DNA of 64,000 bases. It comes from a bacterium SCSIO 12741 (GTDB lineage: Bacteria > Bacteroidota > Bacteroidia > Flavobacteriales_G > Salibacteraceae). A program made the translations under genes and the position numbers. The stretch covers positions 2,604,594-2,668,593 of the forward strand of contig CP073749.1 in assembly GCA_024398055.1 (NCBI GenBank), written 5' to 3'. Shown one piece after another: positions 40,565 to 53,738 of this stretch. Below the pieces are notes generated by a model that had not been told where the DNA came from, did not search any database, and saw nothing but the letters and a program-made list of their open reading frames with translations. The stretch's first letter is position 1; each line of letters opens with the position of its first letter.

Positions 40565-41290
40565 TTGAATCGAGCCCGGATCCATATCAGATGGCTGTGC
40601 TTCACCCGAAGTCGAGTCCTTCTGTTGTTGATTCTTTTCTTTACTTCCTTTTCCCTTCAAGCTCAGTGGGTGAAAGAGGACGATACGAGCCGGGTATGGA
40701 TGAAAGATGGGATTTACCTCAATGCCGAGGAATTCTACACCAATTCACCTTCAGCCGAATGGGTTTTGATTTCAGATAAGGAATGGAGGTACAGGGATTC
40801 CATTCAGCGGAAAGGAGTTTTGGTAGAAATTACTTCCCGGGAAATCGTAAGAAGCAACATTGATATTCGAAGTCACCGGGTACTTTGCGACACCGGTACA
40901 GGAAGGGTGACTATTGATGTCAAAGAGATTTGGGGGCTTTGTATTCATGGAACTCCTTATCAGCATATCCAATTTGAAAGTCGTGAAAATTTTATTCGGG
41001 TAAAGTTGCTTGGGAGGGTTAGTTTTTTGAGCTATACCCGGGAGTTTGATGACAACTTTAACATGGTTCCCAACCTGATGAATGAGGATCGGCAAATGCA
41101 ATCGGAAGTCATTGATTTGATTGTGGATTTTGATGAGCAGCGAATGATTCGAAATCGTCGTGCCAATCTTGAAGATATACTCCAAAGAGACCCAGAGATG
41201 TATCAATCCTATTTATTGGAAAAGAAGAAGTCCAGGGCGATAGGAGAGTACATCGAACAATACAACCGGAAATACCCGCTCGATTTTTAA
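40565..41290 (+). CDS. Hypothetical exported protein
   Basis: I do not recognise this 241-residue protein. It has a basic N-terminus followed by a hydrophobic stretch ending LQAQ at about residue 33, consistent with a signal peptide, then a mixed alpha/beta soluble domain with no repeated motif. It starts on a TTG nine bases after the E1 gene, so it is probably co-transcribed with it. No better start is visible before the hydrophobic segment. It ends 219 bases before the first lanthipeptide precursor, and nothing links it to that cluster. Confidence 0.65.
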   Translation: MNRARIHIRWLCFTRSRVLLLLILFFTSFSLQAQWVKEDDTSRVWMKDGIYLNAEEFYTNSPSAEWVLISDKEWRYRDSIQRKGVLVEITSREIVRSNIDIRSHRVLCDTGTGRVTIDVKEIWGLCIHGTPYQHIQFESRENFIRVKLLGRVSFLSYTREFDDNFNMVPNLMNEDRQMQSEVIDLIVDFDEQRMIRNRRANLEDILQRDPEMYQSYLLEKKKSRAIGEYIEQYNRKYPLDF

Positions 41291-41375
41291 GAATTTAGAA
41301 ACCCACCTGGAATCTGACCCCAATACTTTATTAGGCATCTATTTTTTTTCGTGATGCTCAAAATGATTTGGTTTA

Positions 41376-41392
41376 GTGCGGGAAAACTGCAC
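41376..41392 (+). promoter_or_regulatory. 17-bp imperfect palindrome upstream of precursor 1
   Basis: GTGCGG-GAAAA-CTGCAC is an inverted repeat with one mismatch in each arm (ideal GTGCGG-N5-CCGCAC). The same 17-bp element occurs 134 bases before precursor 1 and 131 bases before precursor 2. It is a candidate operator, possibly for the helix-turn-helix protein encoded between them. Confidence 0.55.
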
Positions 41393-41509
41393 TGCATTCG
41401 ATTCTATTTACCCTGCAATTTTTGACCTCTGGCCGGATCGAATTGTAAGTGGAAGCCGAAAACCTTTTAAAAGAGTAGGCGGAAAAATTTGATTCTTAAA
41501 AAGATTAGC

Positions 41510-41722
41510 ATGAAAAAGTTAAAGCTAAAAAAGGAAACGATTGCGACTTTAAGCAACCATCAAATGGAGGTGGTTCATGGCGGATTATTCAAATCTCGTT
41601 TTTTGTGTCGCAAGAAACAAACGATGCCTCCCGGATGTCCTTCCGAGAGAACTTGCTTCTGTGGAATTACGCCATCTGAAGATCATTCTTCCGACCAGTC
41701 CATGGGAGATGGTCCAATCTAA
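41510..41722 (+). CDS. Class I lanthipeptide precursor 1
   Basis: This 70-residue peptide has the Bacteroidota lanthipeptide leader KKLKLKKETIATL (residues 2-14) and a double-glycine cleavage site at 24-25. The 45-residue core contains Cys at core positions 8, 18, 24 and 26 and Ser/Thr at 4, 13, 20 and 23 to pair with them. The tail after Cys26 is acidic and Ser/Asp rich. I start it at ATG 41510, where the leader begins; an upstream in-frame TTG (41489) is open but adds no family sequence. It is a lone gene, closed by its own terminator, and lies 1.4 kb before its paralogue. The core has no obvious match to described lanthipeptides that I can recall. Confidence 0.88.
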   Translation: MKKLKLKKETIATLSNHQMEVVHGGLFKSRFLCRKKQTMPPGCPSERTCFCGITPSEDHSSDQSMGDGPI

Positions 41723-41738
41723 GATATTGCATGAAAAT

Positions 41739-41774
41739 TATAGGGTTTGGTTCAGCCAATCCCTATAGTTTTTT
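41739..41774 (+). terminator. Rho-independent terminator after precursor 1
   Basis: TATAGGGTTTGG (41739-41750) pairs with CCAATCCCTATA (41756-41767) with one mismatch across a TTCAG loop, followed by GTTTTTT. It isolates precursor 1 from the antisense thioesterase. Confidence 0.88.
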
Positions 41775-41878
41775 ACCGGACCAAAACGTTCGATTGGACT
41801 TTGAAAAATGAATGAAATGGTCTTTTTGTTCCTGAAACAAGCCTAAATGTGAGGTTAATTAGCCAAAATCCTGGGAAT

Positions 41879-42319
41879 TTATCGAGCCGGATATACGTTA
41901 AAAGTTCCCATAGCCTTCGCAATGATCAGGTCACCCACTTTGATCTCACCTTCCACTACTTGCAATCTTTTTCCTTGACGAATTACCTGACCTTTTCCCT
42001 CCAGTATAGAACCCGTTTTTGCTGGATTGAGGTAGTTAATCTTAAATTCAACAGTACTCACTAAGCAGCCCGCATCAGCTACTGCAGAAAGAGCCGTAAC
42101 TCCCAATAAGCCATCCATTAATGCGGCAATAAGCCCTCCATGAGTTGTTCCAGGAAGAGCTTCAAATTCCGGTTTTAAAGGCAACGAGTAGTTTACCTGA
42201 CCCGGTGCAACAAGAGTGAAATCCATTCCCAAAAAATCTCCAAAGCGATTGGAGGCTTTGTATTGTTCAATGATGCGTTTCGCTGTATCCATAGTGCGAA
42301 GGTAATCAGGAGATAACAT
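41879..42319 (-). CDS. PaaI-type hotdog thioesterase
   Basis: The 146-residue protein has the hotdog-fold pattern of PaaI-like acyl-CoA thioesterases: FGDFLGMDFTLVAPGQ, the central LPGTTHGGLIAALMDG (with the His-Gly-Gly that opens the active-site helix) and VEFKINYLNPAKTG. The exact acyl substrate is unknown. It is transcribed opposite to the surrounding lanthipeptide genes and is probably a bystander. A second in-frame ATG at 42292 would remove nine residues and also matches family starts. Confidence 0.88.
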   Translation of the reverse strand: MLSPDYLRTMDTAKRIIEQYKASNRFGDFLGMDFTLVAPGQVNYSLPLKPEFEALPGTTHGGLIAALMDGLLGVTALSAVADAGCLVSTVEFKINYLNPAKTGSILEGKGQVIRQGKRLQVVEGEIKVGDLIIAKAMGTFNVYPAR

Positions 42320-42373
42320 TCGTTAACCCCCTATTTCAGTGTTTGTACAACAATATCGCGTTTACAATGATCG

Positions 42374-42402
42374 TTGATATCAGGCAACATTTGTTAATTT
42401 TG
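42374..42402 (+). promoter_or_regulatory. Promoter upstream of the helix-turn-helix gene
   Basis: TTG (42374-42376) and TAATTTTG (42395-42402) are separated by 18 bases, close to the consensus. Transcription would start near 42407, giving a leader of about 105 bases before the ATG at 42514; the leader contains the direct repeat AATTAAACT, at about 42480 and 42490. Confidence 0.5.
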
Positions 42403-42513
42403 TCAGGAGTTACCGGTCTTCCTTAAAATGCAGTATCAATTCCTCAACCGAGTTGTCTGTCTGGATTGTGCCGGGCCCAATTAAACTTTAATTAAACTAC
42501 TTTACCCTTAAGT

Positions 42514-42897
42514 ATGAACCTTAGAAAAACCTTAATCCGGTTGCATCGGATCGATGATCTGATTGCACGTCGAGCGACCGGAAACCCCGAGGAGTTTGCT
42601 CAAAAGTTGGGCGTGTCGAAGCGCCGCCTTTTTGAATTGCTGAATGAGATTAAAGGATATGGTGTGGAGATTGAATACAATCCCATGCGCGAATCCTACA
42701 TATACTCGGAGGGAGGGCCTTTGTTTGAAGGCGATAGTTTAAACATGAACCGAATCGTTGGCGGCAAAGCAGATTCGGATTTTCACAAATATTTTCATGT
42801 ATTTGGTAGATTGCCTTGGTTCAGTGCGGAAAAATCGCGCTCCAATGCATTCTCTTTACGTTGCAATTTTGATTTTCTGGCCAGAGCAAATTTGTAA
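42514..42897 (+). CDS. Small helix-turn-helix protein, probable regulator of the lanthipeptide cluster
   Basis: The first 65 residues form a compact HTH domain: HRIDDLIARRATGNPEEFAQ followed by the recognition unit KLGVSKRRLFELLNEIKGYG and a beta turn ending in ESYIYSEGG. Small HTH proteins of this type are frequent in Bacteroidota. The C-terminal third (about residues 95-127) is encoded by the same sequence that, in the other copy, is untranslated leader of precursor 1, so this tail is probably not a conserved domain. The gene is co-oriented with and just upstream of precursor 2. A regulatory role is inferred from the fold and position only. Confidence 0.7.
   Translation: MNLRKTLIRLHRIDDLIARRATGNPEEFAQKLGVSKRRLFELLNEIKGYGVEIEYNPMRESYIYSEGGPLFEGDSLNMNRIVGGKADSDFHKYFHVFGRLPWFSAEKSRSNAFSLRCNFDFLARANL
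42824..42840 (+). promoter_or_regulatory. 17-bp imperfect palindrome upstream of precursor 2 (second copy)
   Basis: GTGCGG-AAAAA-TCGCGC occupies the same position relative to precursor 2 as the element at 41376-41392 does to precursor 1. The arms have two mismatches. It lies inside the coding sequence of the helix-turn-helix gene. Confidence 0.5.
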
Positions 42898-42954
42898 GCG
42901 TATGCCGAAAAGCTTGTGAAAAGAGTAGGCGACTAATTAGACTTTTAAACTATC

Positions 42955-43167
42955 ATGAAAAAGTTAAAGCTTAACAAAGAGACGATCGCAACGTTGAACA
43001 ACAACCAAATGGAAGAAATTCAAGGAGGACTTTTCAAGTCTCGCTGGTTGTGCGGAAAGAAAACCTCTAAAACTTACGAGTGTAGCTCAGAAAGAACTTG
43101 CTTCTGCCACAGTACTGCTCCATCGGACGAAGCTCCAGGAGAAGTTAACGAGCAAGGTCCAATGTAA
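42955..43167 (+). CDS. Class I lanthipeptide precursor 2
   Basis: This 70-residue paralogue of precursor 1 has leader KKLKLNKETIATL, a Gly-Gly site at 24-25 and a 45-residue core. Cys at core positions 8, 18, 24 and 26 and Ser/Thr at 4, 13, 20 and 23 are identical in position to precursor 1, and the blocks LFKSR and SERTCFC are identical in sequence. The core tail (residues 27-45) is diverged. It is the copy nearest the modification genes and is closed by a terminator, with the enzyme genes starting about 100 bases further on. The identical positions across diverged sequence argue that the ring pattern is under selection. Confidence 0.9.
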   Translation: MKKLKLNKETIATLNNNQMEEIQGGLFKSRWLCGKKTSKTYECSSERTCFCHSTAPSDEAPGEVNEQGPM

Positions 43168-43190
43168 GAAGAGACCACGTAAATTTTACA

Positions 43191-43222
43191 GGGAGCAGCT
43201 TGCCTGCTCCCTTCCTTTTGTT
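43191..43222 (+). terminator. Hairpin terminator or attenuator after precursor 2
   Basis: GGGAGCAG (43191-43198) pairs with CTGCTCCC (43204-43211) around CTTGC, followed by TTCCTTTTGTTTT. Partial read-through here would give much more precursor than enzyme mRNA, a usual arrangement in lanthipeptide clusters. Confidence 0.85.
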
Positions 43223-43315
43223 TTAACCTCGTTGCTGGATTTTCCTGTTAACGCTATTTGTCAACGCCTACAACCTTAAATGTAAAATGCAACCTTAAAT
43301 AGTTACGAATAATCC

Positions 43316-44452
43316 ATGATGCTTCGCCCAACTAAGGACGTCAACCGTACTCTCCAAAAAGTCCTCGTTGAACCCAAGAGCTACCTGTTACCCAAGGTTT
43401 TCTTGACTTGGGTGCTTGGTGTATTAATTTTCGTGATATGCTCTTTTTCCGACCAGCTTACTAAACCCCAAACCGTTTCGTACTCATTTATTGATTCGCT
43501 TGCCCAAGAGGCTCAGGTCCTTTGCTTGGGAGAACAGTGGCATCGCTTCGAGACTTACAATTCCTTCAAATCGGGATTAATCCCCTATTTAATGGAAGAG
43601 CATGGCTACTCGGTGGTGGTCTTTGAATCGTCGATCTACGGAGCACTTATTGCCGATCGCGAAAAATATACAGGAAGGGAAAGGTTGTTTCAAACTCTAC
43701 CCACGATCTGGAGAACGCCGGATCTTTTAAACCTCTTTCACTTTCTTGATGAGAGTTCAACACAGCCGCAACTATATGGGGTGGATCCGAATGGGCCTTA
43801 TGACTTAGGGTTTTCCCGTTTTCTACGGAAGCAATTACAAGCCGCTGATTTTGAACAAGCGGATGAACTGTTCGCTTTAGACAGTGTATTGTGGAATGTT
43901 TGGCTCAATCAACACCAGCAATATGGAAAGCACCAGGCCGATGATAAGATCCACTTAAATGATACTGCGCTGTACCACCAATCGTTAGTTTTATTTCCTG
44001 CCCAATCTTGGGAGCGTCAATGCCTGCAAAATCGCATTTACCTCATTCAGAAAATGCAACTTCAAGGAAGAGAGGCAGTTCTGTTTAGAGACAGCATTAT
44101 GGCCCTGAATGCTGAATGGGTACTCAACCAATTGGAGCCAAATACCAAAGTCATTTTATGGGCAGCAGATATGCACTTATCCTATGATTGGAAAGCGGTA
44201 GACAAAAAACTTACCGGCAAATCCATGATGATGCATTTGAAAGAAAGGAGTGAACGAACTATTCGAACCCTTTCCCTTCAGGATTTTGATCAACTAAAAA
44301 AGTCGGAGCGAAAGCTCTATCCCGAATTTGAGGGGGGACATTTATTCGTTGATCGCATTCCGGAACCAGACTCCCGATCCGATCAGTTTGATGCCATTCT
44401 CTTTTTTAAAAATGTTCAACCCGAAAAAAACTATTTAAAGAATGAACCTTAA
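43316..44452 (+). CDS. Erythromycin-esterase-like protein of the lanthipeptide cluster
   Basis: The 378-residue protein has one membrane helix near the N-terminus (about residues 29-45) and then a domain resembling erythromycin-esterase-like hydrolases: LCLGEQWHRFETYNSFK (the family's GExxH region), YSVVVFESSIYGALIADRE and, near the end, KVILWAADMHLSYDW (counterpart of the WAHNxHI motif). The catalytic His and Glu are therefore plausible but two positions differ from the antibiotic-inactivating enzymes. Its substrate is unknown: removal of an ester or lactone, or immunity, are only guesses. It overlaps lanC by 11 bases, so it belongs to the cluster operon. Confidence 0.65.
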   Translation: MMLRPTKDVNRTLQKVLVEPKSYLLPKVFLTWVLGVLIFVICSFSDQLTKPQTVSYSFIDSLAQEAQVLCLGEQWHRFETYNSFKSGLIPYLMEEHGYSVVVFESSIYGALIADREKYTGRERLFQTLPTIWRTPDLLNLFHFLDESSTQPQLYGVDPNGPYDLGFSRFLRKQLQAADFEQADELFALDSVLWNVWLNQHQQYGKHQADDKIHLNDTALYHQSLVLFPAQSWERQCLQNRIYLIQKMQLQGREAVLFRDSIMALNAEWVLNQLEPNTKVILWAADMHLSYDWKAVDKKLTGKSMMMHLKERSERTIRTLSLQDFDQLKKSERKLYPEFEGGHLFVDRIPEPDSRSDQFDAILFFKNVQPEKNYLKNEP

Positions 44453-45665
44453 ATCTCCAACCGCCAAAGAGGTAACCGATTCGTCGGTGCCTCATGTACC
44501 TGAATTTATACTGTCTGCTATTTACCAGCAATTGAGCCAAGTCGTACCCACTTGGTCTGAGCTTGGATTGATGGGAGGGATTAGCGGAATAGGTCTGTTT
44601 TTGAAGGAATACGAAAGGGCTTTTCCGGGTCAAAGCCAAAACCTAACTCAGTTGGTGAAAGAGCGATTGATAGAGGAGGTCAATAGCATTGGCAGTTTGG
44701 ATTTGAGTGATGGCCTTATGGGAGTTACCTGGGCACTGAATCATTTGTTTGATCCATCCGAAAAAGATGAGGACTGGAAAGATTTTGAAAGAGAGGTGAT
44801 TGAATTGGCAATTTCCAATTTCGAACAGAATTGTCAGGAACGAAATACGGACTATCTCTATGGAGCTGGAGGAGATCTCTTCTTTTTAATTGAGTCAGGA
44901 GCCTTAGATTTCGAGGAATACGAAAATCGGATTCGAGCCACTCTTGCCTTGCTCATTGAGCAGATGCAAGGGGAGGAGGGAAAGGCCTACTTCCTAAGTC
45001 CACCTAAACATGGCGTGGCGCCATTGATCAACCTGGGAATTGCTCATGGAATGCCGGCATATGTCGCCCTTTTTTCAAGAATTAGCTCATGGAAGAATTG
45101 GTCCGAAGTGGATCACGCATTAACCGGGATGAAAGGGTTCATGCAGTCTATCGCACGCTTCGATCAACCGAGTTGTTTTCCCTATTCGATAGAACCGGAC
45201 AATCCGGAGAAAACCTCCTATGACAGTCGATTAGCCTGGTGTTATGGAGATCCAGGAATTGCTTTGCAGTGGATTAGACAGGCCGAGTTGACCCAGGATA
45301 CTGACACTTACGATTGGGCCCTCAACATTGCTCTACATGCTTCTTTAAGAAGAGACAAACAAAAAAATGGCCTCGTTGATCCCGCATTTTGCCATGGTAC
45401 AGTTGGAATGGCTCATCTGTTTCAATTATTGGCCAAGCAAACAGATCGGGAGGAATTTTTGGAAGCCAGTAATCATTGGATTCAACATACCGTAAAGGAC
45501 ATTCAGACCGGTGAACTTTTACAGCGATTTACCATTACGCATAACGGAGAGACGATGGAGGATTATGGAATACTCACTGGAATTGCTGGAATAGGAATGA
45601 CTTTACTTGGGCAAAACCACTCTATCCAAGTGCCCTGGGACCATCCTTTTCTAATTAACTACTAA
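44442..45665 (+). CDS. lanC: Lanthionine synthetase C family protein (LanC cyclase)
   Basis: This 407-residue enzyme catalyses addition of cysteine thiols to dehydrated Ser/Thr, forming (methyl)lanthionine rings. It has the alpha-toroid repeats with the conserved LSDGLMGVTWAL, YLYGAGGDLFFL and the His of GIAHGMPAYVALF (H202), and the zinc site: C267 in WCYGDPG and C317-H318 in AFCHGTVG. All key residues of NisC-type cyclases are present. Length is typical (about 410). It precedes lanB with three bases between stop and ATG, so the two are translationally linked. Confidence 0.94.
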   Translation: MNLKSPTAKEVTDSSVPHVPEFILSAIYQQLSQVVPTWSELGLMGGISGIGLFLKEYERAFPGQSQNLTQLVKERLIEEVNSIGSLDLSDGLMGVTWALNHLFDPSEKDEDWKDFEREVIELAISNFEQNCQERNTDYLYGAGGDLFFLIESGALDFEEYENRIRATLALLIEQMQGEEGKAYFLSPPKHGVAPLINLGIAHGMPAYVALFSRISSWKNWSEVDHALTGMKGFMQSIARFDQPSCFPYSIEPDNPEKTSYDSRLAWCYGDPGIALQWIRQAELTQDTDTYDWALNIALHASLRRDKQKNGLVDPAFCHGTVGMAHLFQLLAKQTDREEFLEASNHWIQHTVKDIQTGELLQRFTITHNGETMEDYGILTGIAGIGMTLLGQNHSIQVPWDHPFLINY

Positions 45666-45668
45666 ACC

Positions 45669-48600
45669 ATGAACAAAACTTACGACATATACCCGATTTC
45701 CTTATTACGGAGTCCGGCTCAGCCCTATCAACCTGGACTTAGTTATGAAGAGTTGGCCGAAGCAGTCAAGGACACCTACTTTTTAAACGCTTTGCAGCTC
45801 GCTTCCAGCAACCTACATAGAAAGGTGAGGCAGGCACTTCTGGAGCACGGCGAACTTCCCAAGAATGACCCTAAGCTTTTAACCACCCTTTACAAGTACC
45901 TGGTCAGGATGAAAACCAGGTGTACGCCCTTTGGTCTGTTTGCAGGGACCTCTCTTCTGACCTTCGGTACCGAAACTCATCTGGTTTCCCAAAATAGGGA
46001 TCAATGGGAGGTTAAGGCCAAGCTGGATATGACCATTGCCGCCGAGGTGATCAACCAATTGAAACAACAACCTGGGTGGAGTGAACGCGAATACTTTGTG
46101 CCTAACGAAACGATCATTGAGTTTCAAGGAAAACTTAGGTATTTGATGCGCGTTCCGGGAACCGATCGTATGAAGTTTGAATTGTGCACGGTGGATACCA
46201 ACGATTATTTGACCGCCTTGCTGCCGACTGCATCCGGAGGGATGAGAAAGATTGAAATGATCAGGTGGTTCCAAATGTTGGACGAGGAACTTACCGAGGA
46301 AGAGATTAGGGAATTTTTGGATGAGTTGATCCAGGAACAGGTACTCGTTCCACAGCTTAATTTGACCGCTGCAGGTAAGGAGCCTTTGGAAAATGTGTTG
46401 TCGCTTCTTCAAAAATCAAAGAGCTGGTCGGCCGAAAAGTCCTTTGCATCCACCCTCGCCGGACTCAGTGAAACCCTGAAAGAAGGAAATACCCAAGGAA
46501 GATTTGGGAATGAGCTTCTTGGTCGGTTGACGGAGAGGGTAAAAGAACTTCTCCCGGAATATGACCGTTCACCGGTAGCCACAGATCTCTATAAACCCTT
46601 GAAAGAGGCCCAACTGGATGAAAAGGTGGGATACGAGTTAAAGGAGATGGTTGCTTTTTTGGCCTCCATCGATTTGCCCAACGACTCAGCCCATGACCGA
46701 TTGGAAACTTTCAAACAGCAATTTTCCAGGAGGTATGAAAACCGGGAAGTATCCTTGGTTGAGGTTTTGGATCTGGAACTCGGCATTGGTTATGCCGGCT
46801 CCGGAATGGGAGATTTGGCTCCTTTTCTAAAAGACGTCTCTCCCGGACAACAAAGCGGAGGGTCGGTTAAAATGACGACCAATCAGTTTCGTCTGTTCCA
46901 GCAGTTGGTCGGACATCCCATGGATACTCCGATGGATCTAAAGAAAATGGCTTTCGTTAAAACTCCAACTCCTACGGAATGGCCGGATAGCTTAGCTGCT
47001 ATGTACAGCGTTCGGATGGGTAAGGATGGGCAAGTGAGCTTGGAATTTGATGGGGCCACGGGGCCAAGCGCATTAAACGTTTTGGGACGATTTGCCTCCA
47101 CCAGCGATTCTATGAAGGAACTTTGTGATGACCTGGTTGAAAGAGAAAAGTCCAAATACCCTGAAGATACGGTTTTGGCCGAAGTCGTCCACCTCCCAGG
47201 GCCGAAACAAGGAAACATTGTTTTTAGACCCAGTTTTAGGGATTACGAAATACCGATTGGTGCACCCTCGGAACGACCAGTGGAAAATCAGATCTTAATT
47301 GGAGACTTGATGGTTTCCGTTCAGAACAATGAGGTCGTTTTGCGCTCCAAAAGGCTCAACAAAAGAGTAGTTCCCAGAAAAGCCAATGCCCAGTCGTTTC
47401 GACAAAGCGCCCTGCCGATTTATCAATTTCTATGTGACCTGCAGTTTCAATCAGGTATCACAGGGGTGTATTTCAAATGGGAAAATATGCCCTATCGATT
47501 AAAGCGCTATCCAGCTCTATACTATGGCGTGCATCAGGTTAGCCCTGCCACCTGGTGCCTGGCGAAAAGCGATTTTGAAGAGCTATTGAAGAATGATCTG
47601 ACTCTTGAAACAATCAGGTCGTGGAGAGCTCGCTGGCAAGTTCCTTCCGAGTTTTTACTCGCCGATGGAGATTTGGAGCTGTTAATTGATTTAGAAACGG
47701 AGGCTGGTCTTGCCGTTTTTCAGCATGCTGCTAAGAACGAATCCCAGATTGTGCTGAAAGAGTTTACGGCTGCTCAAGATGAAATGATTTTGCACGATGC
47801 CCTTGGAGAGGGCTATCACCATAAACTCATTTCCTTTTTGACCTTGAACAAAAAGCACCAACCGTTTTCCTTTCAATTGCCGAAGACCGGTAAAGTGCAG
47901 CGTAGGTTTTCATTGGGATCGGAGTGGATGTTCGTGAAAATCTACGGGAGTACCCAAACGGCTGATTCGGTGCTGGTCCGAAACATTTACCCGCTCATTA
48001 ATAAGTGGTCAAACGAAGGGTTGATGAAGCAATGGTTCTTTATTCGCTATGCGGATCCGGACCCTCACCTTCGGCTTCGATTGAGGCTTGTGGAATCATC
48101 CGACTATCCGAAGCTTCTTCAGGAGCTCAATCACGAATTAGAGGAATTACGTGAGTCAGGTAAGGTTCAAGCACTCTTGCCAGATGATTATATAAGAGAG
48201 TTGGAACGATATGGCCCTGAATCGATGGAGGATATTGAGCATTTCTTCCATGCAGATAGCGAAGCCACGGTTCACTTTTTATCACAATTGCCCAGCCTCA
48301 GTGGCGATCGCGAAAGGTGGTCCTTCTTTGTGCACTCCATTGACGATATGTTCAACCAACTGGAATTCGACCTAAACCAGAAATTGGATTTGATGGGAAT
48401 CCTGAAACAATCTTTCGATCGGGAGTTTAAGGCTGGAAGAATCCAAAAGATTCAAATGGATAAGAAGTTTAGAGCTACCCGTAAAACACTCGAAGAAGTG
48501 TTGAATCCGAAGATGGATTCCGATGCCTCACTGGCTGATTATGTACTCAAGCATCGAAGCGAAATTATGGGAGACCATTGGAATCGTATCAGGCAGCAAA

Positions 48601-48779
48601 TAGAAGCCGGGGATGCTGAATGGAAAAACCGGTTGGCCAGTATGGTTCACATGATAGGAAACCGCATTTTTTGTGACCGTCAGCGTCTTTATGAGTTTGT
48701 AATCTACAACCTCATGCACAAGTTTTACATCTCTCTGAAAGCTCGAAAAGCAAAAGCTGAAGTAGCTCTTGAGCAATAG
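45669..48779 (+). CDS. lanB: Lantibiotic dehydratase LanB (full length)
   Basis: The 1036-residue enzyme uses glutamyl-tRNA to glutamylate and then dehydrate Ser/Thr of the precursor core. The N-terminal Lant_dehydr_N region is recognised from LYKYLVRMKTRCTPFGLFAG (about 73-92), and the C-terminal elimination domain (SpaB_C-like, about 754-1025) from WMFVKIYGS and FFIRYADPDPHLRLRLRL. Both domains are in one chain, unlike the split dehydratases reported for some Bacteroidota lanthipeptides such as pinensin. It lies between lanC and the exporter gene, 35 bases before the latter. Confidence 0.94.
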   Translation: MNKTYDIYPISLLRSPAQPYQPGLSYEELAEAVKDTYFLNALQLASSNLHRKVRQALLEHGELPKNDPKLLTTLYKYLVRMKTRCTPFGLFAGTSLLTFGTETHLVSQNRDQWEVKAKLDMTIAAEVINQLKQQPGWSEREYFVPNETIIEFQGKLRYLMRVPGTDRMKFELCTVDTNDYLTALLPTASGGMRKIEMIRWFQMLDEELTEEEIREFLDELIQEQVLVPQLNLTAAGKEPLENVLSLLQKSKSWSAEKSFASTLAGLSETLKEGNTQGRFGNELLGRLTERVKELLPEYDRSPVATDLYKPLKEAQLDEKVGYELKEMVAFLASIDLPNDSAHDRLETFKQQFSRRYENREVSLVEVLDLELGIGYAGSGMGDLAPFLKDVSPGQQSGGSVKMTTNQFRLFQQLVGHPMDTPMDLKKMAFVKTPTPTEWPDSLAAMYSVRMGKDGQVSLEFDGATGPSALNVLGRFASTSDSMKELCDDLVEREKSKYPEDTVLAEVVHLPGPKQGNIVFRPSFRDYEIPIGAPSERPVENQILIGDLMVSVQNNEVVLRSKRLNKRVVPRKANAQSFRQSALPIYQFLCDLQFQSGITGVYFKWENMPYRLKRYPALYYGVHQVSPATWCLAKSDFEELLKNDLTLETIRSWRARWQVPSEFLLADGDLELLIDLETEAGLAVFQHAAKNESQIVLKEFTAAQDEMILHDALGEGYHHKLISFLTLNKKHQPFSFQLPKTGKVQRRFSLGSEWMFVKIYGSTQTADSVLVRNIYPLINKWSNEGLMKQWFFIRYADPDPHLRLRLRLVESSDYPKLLQELNHELEELRESGKVQALLPDDYIRELERYGPESMEDIEHFFHADSEATVHFLSQLPSLSGDRERWSFFVHSIDDMFNQLEFDLNQKLDLMGILKQSFDREFKAGRIQKIQMDKKFRATRKTLEEVLNPKMDSDASLADYVLKHRSEIMGDHWNRIRQQIEAGDAEWKNRLASMVHMIGNRIFCDRQRLYEFVIYNLMHKFYISLKARKAKAEVALEQ

Positions 48780-48814
48780 CCCCACATGAATATGAACGAA
48801 TCCATATACCCTAT

Positions 48815-51013
48815 ATGAGTTTTCCGTTTTATAAACAACCCGATACCATGGACTGTGGTCCAACTTGCCTTCGGATGATTTCTAAATTTTACGGGAGAAG
48901 TATATCGCTCGAAAAATTGAGGAGGCTGGCTGAGGCTACCCGTGAAGGAGTATCGCTAAAGAATCTGGCGGACGCAGCAGAGAAGGTCGGTTTCAGAACC
49001 CTGGGTGTGCGCTTAACCTACGACCAGCTCAAAGATGATGTGCCGTTGCCATGCATCGTTTTCTGGAGACAAGAACATTTTGTGGTCGTTCATAAAGTAA
49101 AAGGAAACAAAGTATTTGTTGCCGATCCCGCTTATTCCATGATGGAATTTTCGCGTGAAGAATTTATGAAGAGCTGGGTTGGAGATAATGCTGGTCCCGA
49201 TGGAACCGGTATTGCTCTTTTGCTGGAACCAACTCCCAAACTGAATCAGACTGAAGACGACGACCATACTGAAGTAAAGGGATTTGCCTTTATTTATCGC
49301 TACCTGTTCCGATACAAGAAATTTTTGGTTCAGCTCGGCATTGGGCTGCTCGCAGGAAGTTTGCTGCAACTCATTTTCCCTTTTCTTACCCAAAGTGTGG
49401 TAGACATTGGAATTCAAAACCAGGATATCCATTTCATCTTTTTGATCCTCATCGCTCAACTGTTTTTGTTTTTGGGCAAAACGGGAATCGAGCTCATTCG
49501 AGGTTGGATTTTGCTTCACTTGAGCACGAGGATCAACATATCTCTAATCTCGGATTTCTTCATCAAGCTAATGAACTTGCCTATCTCCTTCTTCGATGTT
49601 AAAATGACGGGAGATATTATGCAGCGGGTAAGTGATCATCAGCGGATTGAAAACCTATTGACCAATACCACGCTCGACGTGCTCTTTTCTTTGTTCAATT
49701 TGGTGGTTTTCGGGGCAATACTTGCCTGGTATGACTGGCGAATTTTTGGCATTTTCCTGCTGGGGAGCGGGCTCTACATAGGTTGGATTGTCATCTTTTT
49801 GAAAAAGCGAAAAGACTTGGATTACAAGCGATTCAATCAACTGAGTAATGAGCAGAGTATGGTCATTGAATTGATCAACGGTATGCAGGAAATTAAACTG
49901 CACAATGCTGAAAAACAAAAGCGTTGGCGGTGGGAATTCCTTCAGGCCCGGTTGTTTAAGATTTCCACCAAAAGCCTGGTGTTGGAGCAGACCCAGAGTA
50001 TTGGTTCAGGATTTATCAATGAACTCAAGAATATTTTGATCAGCATTTTCGCCGCCAAATTGGTTATCGAGGGCCAGATAACCCTGGGTATGATGATGTC
50101 GATCTCCTACATTCTTGGGCAGCTAAATAGCCCTATCCAGCAGCTGATTGGTTTTGTTTACTCGGTTCAAAATGCAAAGATTGCTTTAGAACGCCTATCC
50201 GAAATTCACGGGCGACCGGATGAAGAGCCTGCGGATGAAGAACGGATTAGCGATGTGCCCCTGGAATCCGGATTTTCACTGGATGGTGTCCATTTTCGAT
50301 ATCCGGGAACTTCCACAGATGTTATTGCAGGATTGGATATGCAAATTCCAGCCAATGGAATAACTGCCATAGTTGGTGCAAGTGGAAGTGGAAAAACAAC
50401 CTTGATGAAAATGCTGCTCAAATTTTACGATGCGGCAGAAGGGCAAATTAGCATTGGCAACTATCCTTTAAGTCAAGTTTCTCAGAAGGCTTGGAGGGCA
50501 CAATGCGGAGTGGTTATGCAGGAAGGTTATTTGTTTAATGACACCATTGCCCACAACATCGCTTTGGGCGAAGAAATCGTAGACCGTGAACGCTTACTCA
50601 GAGCGGTTGATATAGCGAATATCCGGGAATACGTCGAGTCGCTGCCCTTAGGATACAATACCCGGGTTGGCTTGGAAGGTGTTGGGTTAAGTACTGGGCA
50701 AAAGCAACGATTGTTGATTGCCCGGGCCGTGTACAAGGATCCCAAGTTCATTTTTTTCGATGAGGCTACCAGTGCCTTGGATGCTCGGAATGAGCGAATA
50801 ATTATGGAAAACCTAAATCGATTTTTTCAAGGAAGAACCGCGGTTGTCATAGCTCACCGCCTGAGCACGGTGCGCAATGCTGATCAGATCGTGGTTTTGG
50901 ACAAGGGAAAGATCATTGAAAAAGGAAGTCACGAAGACTTAATTGCCTTAAAAGGAAGCTACTACAGTTTGGTGAAAAACCAGCTGGAATTGGAACGTTT
51001 ACAACAAGTGTGA
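48815..51013 (+). CDS. lanT: Peptidase-containing ABC exporter (C39 type, LanT)
   Basis: The 732-residue exporter cleaves double-glycine leaders and secretes the peptide. The N-terminal C39 peptidase has catalytic C14 (PDTMDCGPTCLRMI), H88 (QEHFVVVHKV) and D104 (VFVADPA). Six membrane helices follow (about 160-435), then the ATPase with Walker A GASGSGKTT (521-529), a variant signature LSTGQKQRL (normally LSGGQ) and Walker B FIFFDEATSALD. The Gly-Gly site in both precursors is its expected substrate. Its presence confirms export with leader removal. Confidence 0.93.
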   Translation: MSFPFYKQPDTMDCGPTCLRMISKFYGRSISLEKLRRLAEATREGVSLKNLADAAEKVGFRTLGVRLTYDQLKDDVPLPCIVFWRQEHFVVVHKVKGNKVFVADPAYSMMEFSREEFMKSWVGDNAGPDGTGIALLLEPTPKLNQTEDDDHTEVKGFAFIYRYLFRYKKFLVQLGIGLLAGSLLQLIFPFLTQSVVDIGIQNQDIHFIFLILIAQLFLFLGKTGIELIRGWILLHLSTRINISLISDFFIKLMNLPISFFDVKMTGDIMQRVSDHQRIENLLTNTTLDVLFSLFNLVVFGAILAWYDWRIFGIFLLGSGLYIGWIVIFLKKRKDLDYKRFNQLSNEQSMVIELINGMQEIKLHNAEKQKRWRWEFLQARLFKISTKSLVLEQTQSIGSGFINELKNILISIFAAKLVIEGQITLGMMMSISYILGQLNSPIQQLIGFVYSVQNAKIALERLSEIHGRPDEEPADEERISDVPLESGFSLDGVHFRYPGTSTDVIAGLDMQIPANGITAIVGASGSGKTTLMKMLLKFYDAAEGQISIGNYPLSQVSQKAWRAQCGVVMQEGYLFNDTIAHNIALGEEIVDRERLLRAVDIANIREYVESLPLGYNTRVGLEGVGLSTGQKQRLLIARAVYKDPKFIFFDEATSALDARNERIIMENLNRFFQGRTAVVIAHRLSTVRNADQIVVLDKGKIIEKGSHEDLIALKGSYYSLVKNQLELERLQQV

Positions 51014-51033
51014 TTGGCAAATAGGGGGAAACT

Positions 51034-52395
51034 ATGCCTGAAACTAAAACAGTAAATACTCGGGTGGAGCGTAGTCAACGGCCACCTGAACGAGATCGGA
51101 CTGAAGAAATTCGATCTGAAGAAGTCCAGGAAATCCTGGGCCATACACCCAGGTGGATCATCCGGCAGGGAATAACTTTAATTTTTGGTTTAATCGTCCT
51201 GCTTTTGGTTCTGGCCTGGCTGGTGGAGTACCCGGAAATCATTTCTGGAGAAATGCATTTAAATACGGAGGTGCCCACCAGCAAATTGTCTTCCAATATC
51301 AATGGCAAACTCACCCAGATTTTGGTTCAGGATGGAGAGGAGGTTAAACCAGGTCAAGCCATTGCCTTTTTAGAAAATCCGATGGATATCTCTGGGGTCG
51401 TTTACCTGGAGAAATACCTCATTCAGGTAGAGTCTATGTTGGCCGGGCGATCCGTAGAACTTCCACCTGTGGATACGAGTCTGGTCTTTGCCAGCGTTCA
51501 GGCCGAATTAACCCGACTTCAGGAAAACTGTTTGGAGTATCAGCATTTTTATCAGGACCCTTATCCGGATGAGGAAAAACGAAACATTCAAAACCGAATT
51601 GATCATTACCGGGAGCTGCTGGCTATAAACCAGGAACAGGTAAATCTATCCCAGCGGGATTTAGAAAATGCCAAAACAAACTTTGAGGCGGATGAAGATT
51701 TGCTCAAACAAGGGGTTATCGCTCCCATGACTTATTTAGAGGAGGAGGCTCGCTTCAATGAAAAGAATCAGGCCGTTCAAGGATTTCTTCAAATGGAGGT
51801 TCAGAATCGGATTACCCTGGCTAATCTTGAAAAAAGGTTGCTCGAAGTAGAGCATGGTTATTCAGAAAAGATGAGGAACCTTACTACCGAAATTCAGTTG
51901 TCTCTTGGTGAAATCAGAAATGAACTAAGTATGTGGGATCAGGACTATGTGATTCGGTCTACCTATACAGGACAACTGGTGTGGTTGGATGACTACGAAT
52001 CCGACCCCTTTGTAGGTGCCGGCCAGGCCTTATTTGCGGTAGTTCCTCCTGAAGGTGAAATCGAAGGAATCATTAAGTTGAGCACCTCCGGATTTGGAAA
52101 GGTGAAAATTGGGCAGAAGGTACGTTTACAGATGGACAATTATCCTCATCAGGAATATGGCATTCTTCAAGGAGAAGTGAAAACCGTCGCTTCTATTCCT
52201 CATAAAAATCAATACCGGGTTACAGTGGCCCTAAATCAAGATCTCCAGACTAACTATGGTTATGAACTCCAATACCTTCCTGAGATGGCTGGTAGAGCAG
52301 AGATTGTGACCGAAAACCTAACCGTGTTGCAGCGAATTCTTTATCAATTGCGGAAGGTAATGGATCGGGATAAACGAAAAAATGCGTCATCCTAG
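51034..52395 (+). CDS. HlyD-family secretion adaptor
   Basis: A 453-residue membrane-fusion protein: short cytoplasmic N-terminus, one membrane helix (about 47-67), a biotinyl-lipoyl-like segment (LTQILVQDGEEVKPGQAIAF), a long coiled-coil hairpin (about 150-290) and a beta-barrel domain (about 320-420). Such adaptors link type I ABC exporters to an outer-membrane channel, which fits the exporter encoded 20 bases upstream. A TolC-like protein is not in the window. Confidence 0.9.
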   Translation: MPETKTVNTRVERSQRPPERDRTEEIRSEEVQEILGHTPRWIIRQGITLIFGLIVLLLVLAWLVEYPEIISGEMHLNTEVPTSKLSSNINGKLTQILVQDGEEVKPGQAIAFLENPMDISGVVYLEKYLIQVESMLAGRSVELPPVDTSLVFASVQAELTRLQENCLEYQHFYQDPYPDEEKRNIQNRIDHYRELLAINQEQVNLSQRDLENAKTNFEADEDLLKQGVIAPMTYLEEEARFNEKNQAVQGFLQMEVQNRITLANLEKRLLEVEHGYSEKMRNLTTEIQLSLGEIRNELSMWDQDYVIRSTYTGQLVWLDDYESDPFVGAGQALFAVVPPEGEIEGIIKLSTSGFGKVKIGQKVRLQMDNYPHQEYGILQGEVKTVASIPHKNQYRVTVALNQDLQTNYGYELQYLPEMAGRAEIVTENLTVLQRILYQLRKVMDRDKRKNASS

Positions 52396-52427
52396 GCTTG
52401 GAATTACCCCCGACTGTGGCAAATTTT

Positions 52428-52435
52428 TAGCTTTG
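52428..52435 (+). promoter_or_regulatory. -7 promoter element directly before the YihY start codon
   Basis: TAGCTTTG matches TAnnTTTG and ends four bases before the ATG at 52440. If active, transcription would begin at or next to the start codon, giving a leaderless or nearly leaderless mRNA. There is no clear -33 element. Confidence 0.35.
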
Positions 52436-52439
52436 AGAC

Positions 52440-53738
52440 ATGATCCAAGACTGGTTGAAGAAAGTGGATGGCCTTTTATGGCACTCCAGCGGTGGCCCCA
52501 AAGTGGTTCGAATACTTATTCAGGCTGCCCGAATTACCTATGTTGCCGGGAGGGAGTTTGTAGCCGATAAATGCGGATTGCGTGCTTCTGCATTAACTTA
52601 TTACAGTACCCTTTCACTGGTGCCCATTTTGGCCCTGCTTTTCGGTATTGCCAAAGGTTTTGGTTTTCAGGATAGCCTGCGACAGAATATTCTGGACAAC
52701 GTCAATCAAAACCAGGAAATCTACCTCTACCTTTTCGATTTTGCGGAAAATACCCTGCGTAATGCGAGAGGGGGAGTAGTAGCTGGTATTGGTATTGTCC
52801 TGTTGTTTTACACCTTGCTGCGAACCATTTCACTGGTGGAAACATCCTTCAACGACATTTGGAAAATAAAGACGCCTCGTTCCTGGATTAGAAAGTTTAC
52901 CGACTATCTATCCATTACACTTTTGGCTCCGTTTGCCCTTATTATTTCAAGTAGTGCTACCGTTTTCATTTCAACCAATGTTAGATCGCTTTCTGAGCGC
53001 AACGAGGTTGTTGAGGTGATTGGGCCGGTCCTTCAGTTGAGCCTGGAGTTCGTGCCTTATTTGATGATTTGGATTTTGTTTTTGGCCATTTACATGATCA
53101 TGCCAAATCGGAGAATCCAATTTTCCAGTGCTTTAATTGGTGCAATTATAGCAGGAACCGGTTACCAACTGGTGGAGTGGGCTTACATTACCTTTCAGGT
53201 AGGGGTTTCTAAATACAACGGTATCTACGGTAGTTTTGCGGCCCTTCCTTTGTTTTTGATCTGGGTGCAAACGAGTTGGAATATTGTGCTTCTTGGTGCT
53301 GAATTGGCCTACGCCCACCAGAATATTGATGAACTTACCGAGCTGAAACACAAACGAGAATTTTCTACGCTTGAAACGCTCAAAGTAGCGGTGATGACCA
53401 TGCATGTATTGGCTCGCCACTACGACGATGATAAGCCTTTTTTAACCCTTAAGGAGATCGCTAAAGAAGTTGGGGTACCTCAGGAAAGTTTGCTTCAACT
53501 CCTCGATGATATGGAGGATAAGAACCTGGTTGTTCATGTAGAACGCATGGACGAGGTGTCTTACCAACCGGCAAGAGATCGGGATCAATTGTCCTTATCC
53601 TTTATCATCAAAACCATGCTGGGCAAAGACGAAGGTCCTGCATCAGAAAATCATGCCGATGTAGAGGCAGCCTTAAAAAAGCTATTTGAGGGAATGGAAA
53701 ACGGCCCAAACGACCGCTTGCTCAAGTCTTTTAACTAA
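52440..53738 (+). CDS. YihY/BrkB family membrane protein
   Basis: The 432-residue inner-membrane protein has the YihY signature ALTYYSTLSLVPILALLF near residue 50 and about six membrane helices up to residue 300, the last with YGSFAALPLFLIWVQTSWNIVLLGAEL. A C-terminal soluble extension (about 315-432) contains a winged-helix-like unit (LTLKEIAKEVGVPQESLLQL). The old label ribonuclease BN is wrong for this family. It follows HlyD by 44 bases, but carries its own TAGCTTTG element five bases before the ATG. A link with the lanthipeptide cluster is not shown. Confidence 0.87.
   Translation: MIQDWLKKVDGLLWHSSGGPKVVRILIQAARITYVAGREFVADKCGLRASALTYYSTLSLVPILALLFGIAKGFGFQDSLRQNILDNVNQNQEIYLYLFDFAENTLRNARGGVVAGIGIVLLFYTLLRTISLVETSFNDIWKIKTPRSWIRKFTDYLSITLLAPFALIISSSATVFISTNVRSLSERNEVVEVIGPVLQLSLEFVPYLMIWILFLAIYMIMPNRRIQFSSALIGAIIAGTGYQLVEWAYITFQVGVSKYNGIYGSFAALPLFLIWVQTSWNIVLLGAELAYAHQNIDELTELKHKREFSTLETLKVAVMTMHVLARHYDDDKPFLTLKEIAKEVGVPQESLLQLLDDMEDKNLVVHVERMDEVSYQPARDRDQLSLSFIIKTMLGKDEGPASENHADVEAALKKLFEGMENGPNDRLLKSFN

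What the first reader, a model, noticed from the sequence alone, without database searches (positions are those of the whole stretch)
41510..43167. Two precursors conserve four Cys and four Ser/Thr at identical core positions: a predicted four-ring scaffold
Both cores have Cys at 8, 18, 24 and 26 and Ser/Thr at 4, 13, 20 and 23, although the tails have diverged. Simple pairing gives rings 4-8, 13-18, 20-24 and 23-26, the last two overlapping as in interlocked rings of nisin-type peptides. The block SERTCFC is invariant. Diverged sequence with fixed ring positions suggests selection on structure, and perhaps a two-component or two-variant product.
Basis: partly seen in the sequence, partly recalled or inferred. 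Interest (0 to 1): 0.8.

Follow-up and report, generated by a model that had tools for sequence, protein, structure and literature searches.

The report
Lanthipeptide pair behind RNA pseudoknots
A bacterium of the Bacteroidota kind carries two sister genes for ring-containing peptides, and each gene sits just behind the same small knotted RNA element, which also precedes such peptide genes in several other bacteria and may control when they are made.

Summary
They are anciently duplicated class I lanthipeptide precursors of a known Bacteroidetes type, beside LanC, full-length LanB, a C39-peptidase exporter, HlyD and an erythromycin-esterase-like protein. Four rings are possible but untested. 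No precursor with the whole scaffold was found elsewhere; in a few related precursors only the first ring position (Ser/Thr-x-x-Leu/Ile-Cys) recurs. The pair looks like two variants, not a two-component system, and lacks nisin's CTPGC. The unexpected part is upstream: each precursor is its own unit, with an Rfam DUF805b RNA 24-29 nt before the start codon and a strong terminator after the stop. Across 60 distinct sites DUF805b shows two interleaved covarying helices (an H-type pseudoknot). It precedes lanthipeptide precursors in nine genomes (six by Rfam, three more by my own model or descriptor); outside this genome, 8 of 79 precursor-like ORFs against 5 of 2616 other ORFs carry it. I found no report of this link in the searches of the held library.

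The parts
41510..41722 (+). precursor 1 (70 aa; leader 1-25 ending GG, core 45 aa)
   Evidence: NF038153 leader 34.5 bits, cut-off 22
42955..43167 (+). precursor 2 (70 aa)
   Evidence: NF038153 leader 39.5 bits, cut-off 22
41446..41481 (+). DUF805b RNA (RF02914) before precursor 1
   Evidence: 37.3 bits, gathering 35.6
42895..42931 (+). DUF805b RNA (RF02914) before precursor 2
   Evidence: 43.9 bits, gathering 35.6
41368..41444 (+). further conserved upstream block of precursor 1 (74% to the other copy)
   Evidence: a search of this genome with the 142 nt upstream of precursor 2 finds this part only before the two precursors
42816..42892 (+). further conserved upstream block of precursor 2 (overlaps the end of the 42514-42897 ORF)
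41733..41773 (+). terminator-like hairpin after precursor 1, its 3' arm running into a T run
   Evidence: -20.5 kcal/mol, z -4.95; not listed by the consensus scan
43190..43212 (+). terminator-like hairpin after precursor 2
   Evidence: listed by the scan; -15.9 kcal/mol, z -3.86
43316..44452 (+). erythromycin-esterase-like protein (role in the cluster unknown)
   Evidence: PF05139 44.3 bits, cut-off 26.4; homologues in 4 of 42 loci searched
44442..45665 (+). LanC cyclase
   Evidence: PF05147 134.9 bits, cut-off 23.2; NisC 2g02 E 7e-7
45669..48779 (+). full-length LanB dehydratase (N-terminal and C-terminal domains)
   Evidence: PF04738 359.4 bits and PF14028 199.5 bits; 9g04, 5ehk, NisB 4wd9
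48815..51013 (+). ABC exporter with C39 peptidase domain (leader removal at GG and export, inferred)
   Evidence: PF03412, PF00664, PF00005
51034..52395 (+). HlyD-type adaptor
   Evidence: PF13437; TIGR01843 below cut-off
42514..42897 (+). small ORF with an HTH-like N-terminus between the precursors; possible regulator
   Evidence: no Pfam or NCBIfam match at E 0.1; weak WYL match E 0.0024; one clear paralogue in the genome, 51% over 70 aa

Best explanation
This is a Bacteroidota-type class I lanthipeptide locus that makes two variants of one scaffold. Each precursor gene is a separate unit with its own DUF805b pseudoknot RNA in the 5' leader and its own terminator. LanB dehydrates core Ser/Thr, LanC joins them to the four Cys (up to four thioether rings, the last two probably overlapping), and the C39-ABC exporter with the HlyD adaptor removes the leader after GG and exports the product. 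The DUF805b RNA, 24-29 nt before the start codon, most likely gates translation or stability of the precursor mRNA, placing the peptides in a regulon of about 17 sites in this genome. Shown: genes, families, leader type, terminator hairpins, the RNA elements, their covariation and their association with precursors. Inferred: ring topology, activity, that the element acts as RNA in the cell, and what signal it senses.
For: Leader family above cut-off in both precursors. LanB, LanC, C39-ABC and HlyD domains. Purifying selection on the leader and core 1-26. DUF805b above gathering before both precursors. Hairpins after both. Pseudoknot: in 60 distinct sites 95.7% of 420 cells pair, 90 cells changed on both sides, 0/500 shuffles as high; the second helix, absent from the structure line of the Rfam model and from my model, pairs in 97.2% of 180 cells, 25 changed on both sides, 0/500 for these two measures. 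The same element lies 16-28 nt before precursors in G242, G325, G061, G209, G364, G001, G239 and G223; Rfam itself lists it at E<=0.1 in G242, G325, G061, G209 and G364. In fetched loci of other genomes a descriptor is found before 8 of 79 precursor-like ORFs (7 genomes) and 5 of 2616 other ORFs, Fisher p 4e-10; one of the 5 is the G364 precursor that my pattern missed.
Against: No mass spectrum or expression data. Folding without pseudoknots gives no signal for either leader RNA (z about 0.7). The precursor 1 element has 3 of 4 pairs in helix 1. Rfam at E<=0.1 did not list the G001, G239 and G223 sites although their loci were scanned. Most precursor-like ORFs in the sample (71 of 79) lack the descriptor, so the RNA is not part of the lanthipeptide system as such. 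Sixteen of the 18 sites that trained my model came from a pattern that required pairing, and the G242, G325 and G223 sites are among them. DUF805b targets are diverse, unusual for a metabolite riboswitch. At E<=1 the Rfam family rang in 14 of 14 control genomes, none above cut-off; at 1e-4 in 0 of 14.
Confidence: 0.72

Rival explanations
1. The DUF805b element works as DNA: a promoter or regulator-binding site of a Bacteroidota regulon, with no role of the RNA fold.
For: Place 16-29 nt before start codons of unrelated genes; GAAAA and GAGTA blocks invariant in the 18 training sites and nearly so in the larger set; no folding signal without the pseudoknot.
Against: Two interleaved helices covary in 60 distinct sites; 2 to 25 bases lie between helix 1 and GAGTA, which a promoter would hardly allow.
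Confidence: 0.22
2. The two precursors form a two-component lanthipeptide that needs both peptides for activity.
For: Two precursors near one set of modifying enzymes; diverged tails.
Against: Both share one scaffold (same Cys positions, 21 of 45 core residues identical) and are separate units; two-component systems normally have distinct partners (general knowledge).
Confidence: 0.1
3. The product is a lanthipeptide but not an antibiotic, for example a signal or surface-active peptide, or has fewer than four rings in one or both variants.
For: I recognised no self-protection gene (LanI or LanFEG type) among the genes read in 40565-53738; in related precursors only the first ring position recurs; Thr29 and extra Ser/Thr allow other patterns.
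Against: All four Cys and a Ser/Thr before each are kept in the pair through saturated synonymous divergence.
Confidence: 0.3
4. The precursors belong to the rSAM-modified RiPP family TIGR04149.
For: Weak leader match, 22.6 and 19.5 bits.
Against: Below the cut-off of 25; NF038153 scores higher; LanB and LanC are adjacent. I did not scan every ORF of the window for an rSAM enzyme.
Confidence: 0.02

Closest known systems
Class I lanthipeptides of Bacteroidetes with LxLxKx5L...GG leaders and C39 peptidases (PMC7268733, passages seen)
   Same: Leader motif, GG cleavage site, C39 exporter, LanB and LanC
   Different: Core scaffold not met elsewhere in the loci read; DUF805b RNA before each precursor; erythromycin-esterase-like gene in the run
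DUF805b RNA, Rfam RF02914
   Same: Both elements above gathering score, upstream of genes
   Different: Targets here are lanthipeptide precursors; a second helix (pseudoknot) covaries but is not in the structure line of the Rfam scan; whether its first description had it I could not read
Nisin/gallidermin/subtilin group (core patterns recalled; CTPGC from passages of PMC12506125)
   Same: Ser-x-x-Leu-Cys near the N-terminus and a Thr-Cys-x-Cys end with possible overlapping rings
   Different: No CTPGC lipid II motif; other leader; C39 instead of LanP; SxxTCxC instead of TxTCxC
Pinensins (named in PMC7268733 passages as the only lanthipeptides isolated from Bacteroidetes at that date)
   Same: Bacteroidetes class I lanthipeptides
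   Different: No sequence comparison made here

Membership tests
Class I lanthipeptide | LanB dehydratase with N- and C-terminal domains | tested here: met
   PF04738 359.4 bits, PF14028 199.5 bits
Class I lanthipeptide | LanC cyclase | tested here: met
   PF05147; WCYG, FCHG and AHG motifs read in the sequence (motif roles recalled)
Class I lanthipeptide | precursor with leader of a class I family and Ser/Thr before each Cys | tested here: met
   NF038153 above cut-off; positions
Class I lanthipeptide | thioether rings in the product | not testable with these tools
   needs mass spectrometry
Nisin group | CTPGC lipid II motif in the core | tested here: not met
   absent from both cores; motif from PMC12506125 passages, which also name rare CTAGC, absent too
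Nisin group | FxLD leader and LanP-type cleavage | tested here: not met
   leader is LxLxKx5L with GG, and the exporter has a C39 domain; FxLD from PMC7268733 passages
Nisin group | interlocked C-terminal rings | tested here: inconclusive
   residue spacing allows it; no topology data
Two-component lantibiotic | two distinct partner scaffolds | tested here: not met
   both cores share one scaffold
TIGR04149 rSAM-modified RiPP | leader above curated cut-off | tested here: not met
   22.6 and 19.5 bits, cut-off 25
DUF805b RNA | covariance-model score above gathering | tested here: met
   37.3 and 43.9 bits, gathering 35.6
DUF805b RNA | cis-regulatory function | not testable with these tools
   position upstream of genes only
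Pinensin family | precursor similarity | not tested
   no pinensin sequence was fetched

The most novel reading that the evidence does not exclude
DUF805b is a compact pseudoknot switch used across Bacteroidota to control a regulon of exported and orphan products, and lanthipeptide precursors have joined it repeatedly in different families. It would be a post-transcriptional control of lanthipeptide production that acts on the precursor mRNA alone and not on the enzymes.
Probability: 0.4. Interest if true: 0.75.

Novelty: new variant of a known kind. Interest (0 to 1): 0.5.

Why it matters
The lanthipeptide cluster is a normal member of a large, little explored Bacteroidetes group, though its four-Cys scaffold was not met elsewhere. 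The link to DUF805b matters more: an RNA family for which I found no function in the searches made gains a defined target class, a second helix with covariation support and an easy assay, a small peptide gene with its own terminator. It also gives a handle for finding lanthipeptide and other small exported-product genes in these bacteria.

Tried and rejected
Core homologues: the ERTCFC DNA pattern occurs in 32 of 395 class genomes (33 places). I read 31 places in 30 loci; only this genome's two lie in precursors, and the other 29 lie in frames of 8 to 346 aa without a precursor look. The two places in G378 and G050 had no locus and were not read. I read 9 foreign places (best E 0.0037): none follows a lanthipeptide leader. 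Whole-precursor search of 149 relatives: 4 foreign genomes, 6 foreign places at E<=1e-3, matching leader and core start; 5 cores were printed. I first overlooked the sixth (G073, L005/L077) because my pattern left out long frames. On checking, it holds SKFLCG and a Cys-x-Cys at the end of a 301-aa frame. The single scan of the GTDB collection used leader stretches and found 2 loci with other cores. Plasmids and phages gave only matches with E of 7-8 under 60% identity; solved structures gave none.

Regulator search: a pattern for HTH ORFs beside other precursors printed nothing and cannot match even this locus, so it was discarded. Sigma-70 promoter scan: 5 sites against 3.7 (sd 2.2) in shuffles. 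Pfam found no family at E 0.01 for the 10 own-genome DUF805b targets tried, one of them only its first 260 residues.

Literature, listings only: DUF805 8 papers, none on the RNA by title and abstract; lanthipeptide with erythromycin esterase 3 papers; lanthipeptide with structured RNA 1 paper; others. Passages seen: PMC12506125, PMC7268733.

Full report
The observation. Cores are 45 aa with Cys at 8, 18, 24 and 26 and shared Ser/Thr at 4, 13, 20, 23 and 29; the last was overlooked. They are duplicates, so shared positions follow from descent. What speaks for selection is that synonymous sites are saturated (pS 0.78) while dN is 0.10 in the leader, 0.29 in core 1-26 and 0.82 in core 27-45. The ring-forming part is held, the tail is nearly free.

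What it is. Both leaders match the class I lanthipeptide leader family NF038153 above its cut-off (34.5 and 39.5 bits against 22), and only weakly the rSAM-related TIGR04149 (22.6 and 19.5 against 25). Downstream, in one tight run, lie an erythromycin-esterase-like gene, LanC, a full-length LanB, an ABC exporter with a C39 peptidase and an HlyD adaptor. LanB aligns over most of its length with 9g04 (E 1e-49) and over its first 870-880 residues with 5ehk and NisB; LanC matches 8byk and NisC. A LanB relative was found in 39 of 395 class genomes at 1e-30, this one included. PMC7268733 (passages) describes this kind in Bacteroidetes: LxLxKx5L leaders, many ending in GG, with a C39 peptidase often in the cluster.

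The core. The whole scaffold was seen in no other precursor: not at the 29 foreign ERTCFC places read (of 31 foreign ones), not at the 9 foreign places read of the core search in 345 genomes, and not among the precursor-like ORFs of the fetched loci (82 distinct). The nearest relatives keep the start only. In G073 a 301-aa frame ends in a leader-like stretch followed by SKFLCG and, later, a Cys-x-Cys without a Thr before it (59% identity over 32 residues). G388 has a sister frame with TRLLC, G001 has SDRLC and one G239 precursor has SQNIC. Among 82 distinct precursor-like ORFs only 2 have Ser/Thr-x-x-hydrophobic-Cys in core 1-14; the two long frames are not in that count. So the first ring position recurs in a few relatives, and the other three are private to this pair. 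Spacing makes 4-8, 13-18, 20-24 and 23-26 a fair guess, but the second core offers other donors (12, 15, 19). The start and the Thr-Cys-x-Cys end recall the nisin and gallidermin group (recalled), but the CTPGC lipid II motif (PMC12506125 passages) and that leader type are absent. The same passages report single nisin-like clusters in two Bacteroidota species, so such peptides in the phylum are not excluded.

The upstream RNA. About 140 nt upstream are shared by both genes (74-76%) although synonymous sites are saturated. Rfam finds DUF805b RNA (RF02914) at 41446-41481 and 42895-42931, 37.3 and 43.9 bits against a gathering score of 35.6. Each precursor is followed by a stable hairpin (z -4.95 and -3.86), so each looks like its own unit. 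This genome has 28 matches at E<=1 among the 150 candidates scored, of which 17 lie at E<=1.5e-4 and 11 above gathering; in that lenient search all 14 control genomes also rang, none above the cut-off. Of the 19 best own-genome loci, 16 have an ORF of at least 30 aa that starts 16-29 nt after the element; L151, L167 and L169 have none at that distance. The 10 targets tried had no Pfam family.

Structure. An alignment of 18 sites gave 97.6% paired cells of 126, but 16 of them were picked by a pairing pattern. A wider set from a model with helix 1 only, trained on those 18 (66 matches, 60 distinct), gave 95.7% of 420 cells paired, 90 cells changed on both sides and 0 of 500 shuffles as high; slid registers fall below 50%. 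Helix 2 alone, not part of the model, gave 97.2% of 180 cells and 25 cells changed on both sides, 0 of 500 each; 14 of 500 shuffles reached its number of pairs with such a change and 18 of 500 its number of further pair types. Plain folding without pseudoknots shows nothing (z about 0.7).

Association with lanthipeptides. Of 25 genomes with leader matches, nine have the element 16-29 nt before at least one precursor: this one, G242, G325, G061, G209, G364, G001, G239 and G223. Rfam alone, over 34 loci centred on leader matches or taken around them, lists 7 DUF805b matches at E<=0.1; all 7 lie before precursors, in 6 genomes (this one, G242, G061, G325, G209, G364). It does not list the G001, G239 and G223 sites, whose loci were among those scanned; these rest on my model and on intact pairing. 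With my model over 42 loci (40 LanB loci, L009, L010), 7 of 11 matches at E<=1 and 9 of 24 at E<=10 lie directly before precursors; the G242 and G325 sites helped to train it. With a descriptor in fetched loci of other genomes, 8 of 79 precursor-like ORFs (7 genomes) against 5 of 2616 other ORFs carry it (Fisher p 4e-10; against ORFs of at least 100 aa 3 of 705, p 1e-6; of at least 150 aa 1 of 532, p 5e-7). One of the 5 is the G364 precursor that my pattern missed. The precursors are not all independent (two of G239 are close relatives) and the loci were chosen by LanB or leader matches. Most (71 of 79) lack the element. DUF805b itself is common: 165 of 295 class genomes at E<=1e-4, 118 above cut-off, 0 of 14 controls. 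In the 30 loci read there it stands before rhodopsin genes in three (one tested by Pfam), and otherwise before small proteins and, by my reading, lipoproteins and exported proteins.

Reading. The enzymes and exporter are shared, while each precursor mRNA has its own RNA element and terminator. The simplest mechanism is control of precursor translation or mRNA stability by the pseudoknot, in step with a wider regulon of exported or orphan products. A DNA-level site is the main rival; interleaved covarying helices and a spacing of 2 to 25 bases between helix 1 and GAGTA speak against it. The signal is unknown. The paper that I believe first described the RNA was not held, and the library search for DUF805 gave 8 papers, none on the RNA by title and abstract, so I cannot say whether helix 2 or the link to lanthipeptides was noted there.

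The erythromycin-esterase-like gene overlaps the LanC start by 11 bases. Homologues were found in 4 of 42 loci (Flammeovirga sp. OC4, G001, G388, G239), next to LanC in three. It is weakly similar to 2rad and EreC (E about 1e-4 to 2e-4). Its role, tailoring or self-protection, is open.

Noticed in passing
L077:2773-3663 (G073) and L078:7263-8171, - strand (G388): Lanthipeptide-like leader and core fused to the end of a protein domain of about 225 aa (61% identical between the two genomes); the domain is distantly related (25% over 220 aa, E 1e-10) to the DUF805b target in L192. No DUF805b match was listed directly upstream of these two.
   Followed up: partly
L209-L212 (genome G091), upstream of precursor start codons: A different conserved element (about GGGCAACAGCA..CTGAA) precedes 16 of 18 lanthipeptide precursor-like ORFs; in the G091 loci scanned (L116, L138, L211, L212) Rfam listed only tRNAs.
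   Followed up: partly
L186, L187, L203: DUF805b RNA 19-21 nt before rhodopsin genes in three genomes (Bac_rhodopsin by Pfam for L186, the other two nearly identical by eye).
   Followed up: partly
own genome, L151, L160, L166 (contig 4044041-4045547): Three DUF805b elements within 1.5 kb, two of them directly before small orphan genes: possibly an array of units each with its own RNA.
   Followed up: no
window 43316-44452; L074, L078, L103, L010: Erythromycin-esterase-like protein recurring beside or near LanC in class I lanthipeptide clusters.
   Followed up: partly
window 42514-42897; L230: HTH-like small ORF between the precursors, with one clear paralogue elsewhere in the genome.
   Followed up: partly
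L200 (genome G149): 48-aa ORF with a GG motif and two Cys directly behind a DUF805b RNA: possible further RiPP precursor; no Pfam match.
   Followed up: no
window 41368-41444 and 42816-42892: Conserved block upstream of the RNA element, found only before the two precursors in this genome: candidate site for a pathway regulator.
   Followed up: no
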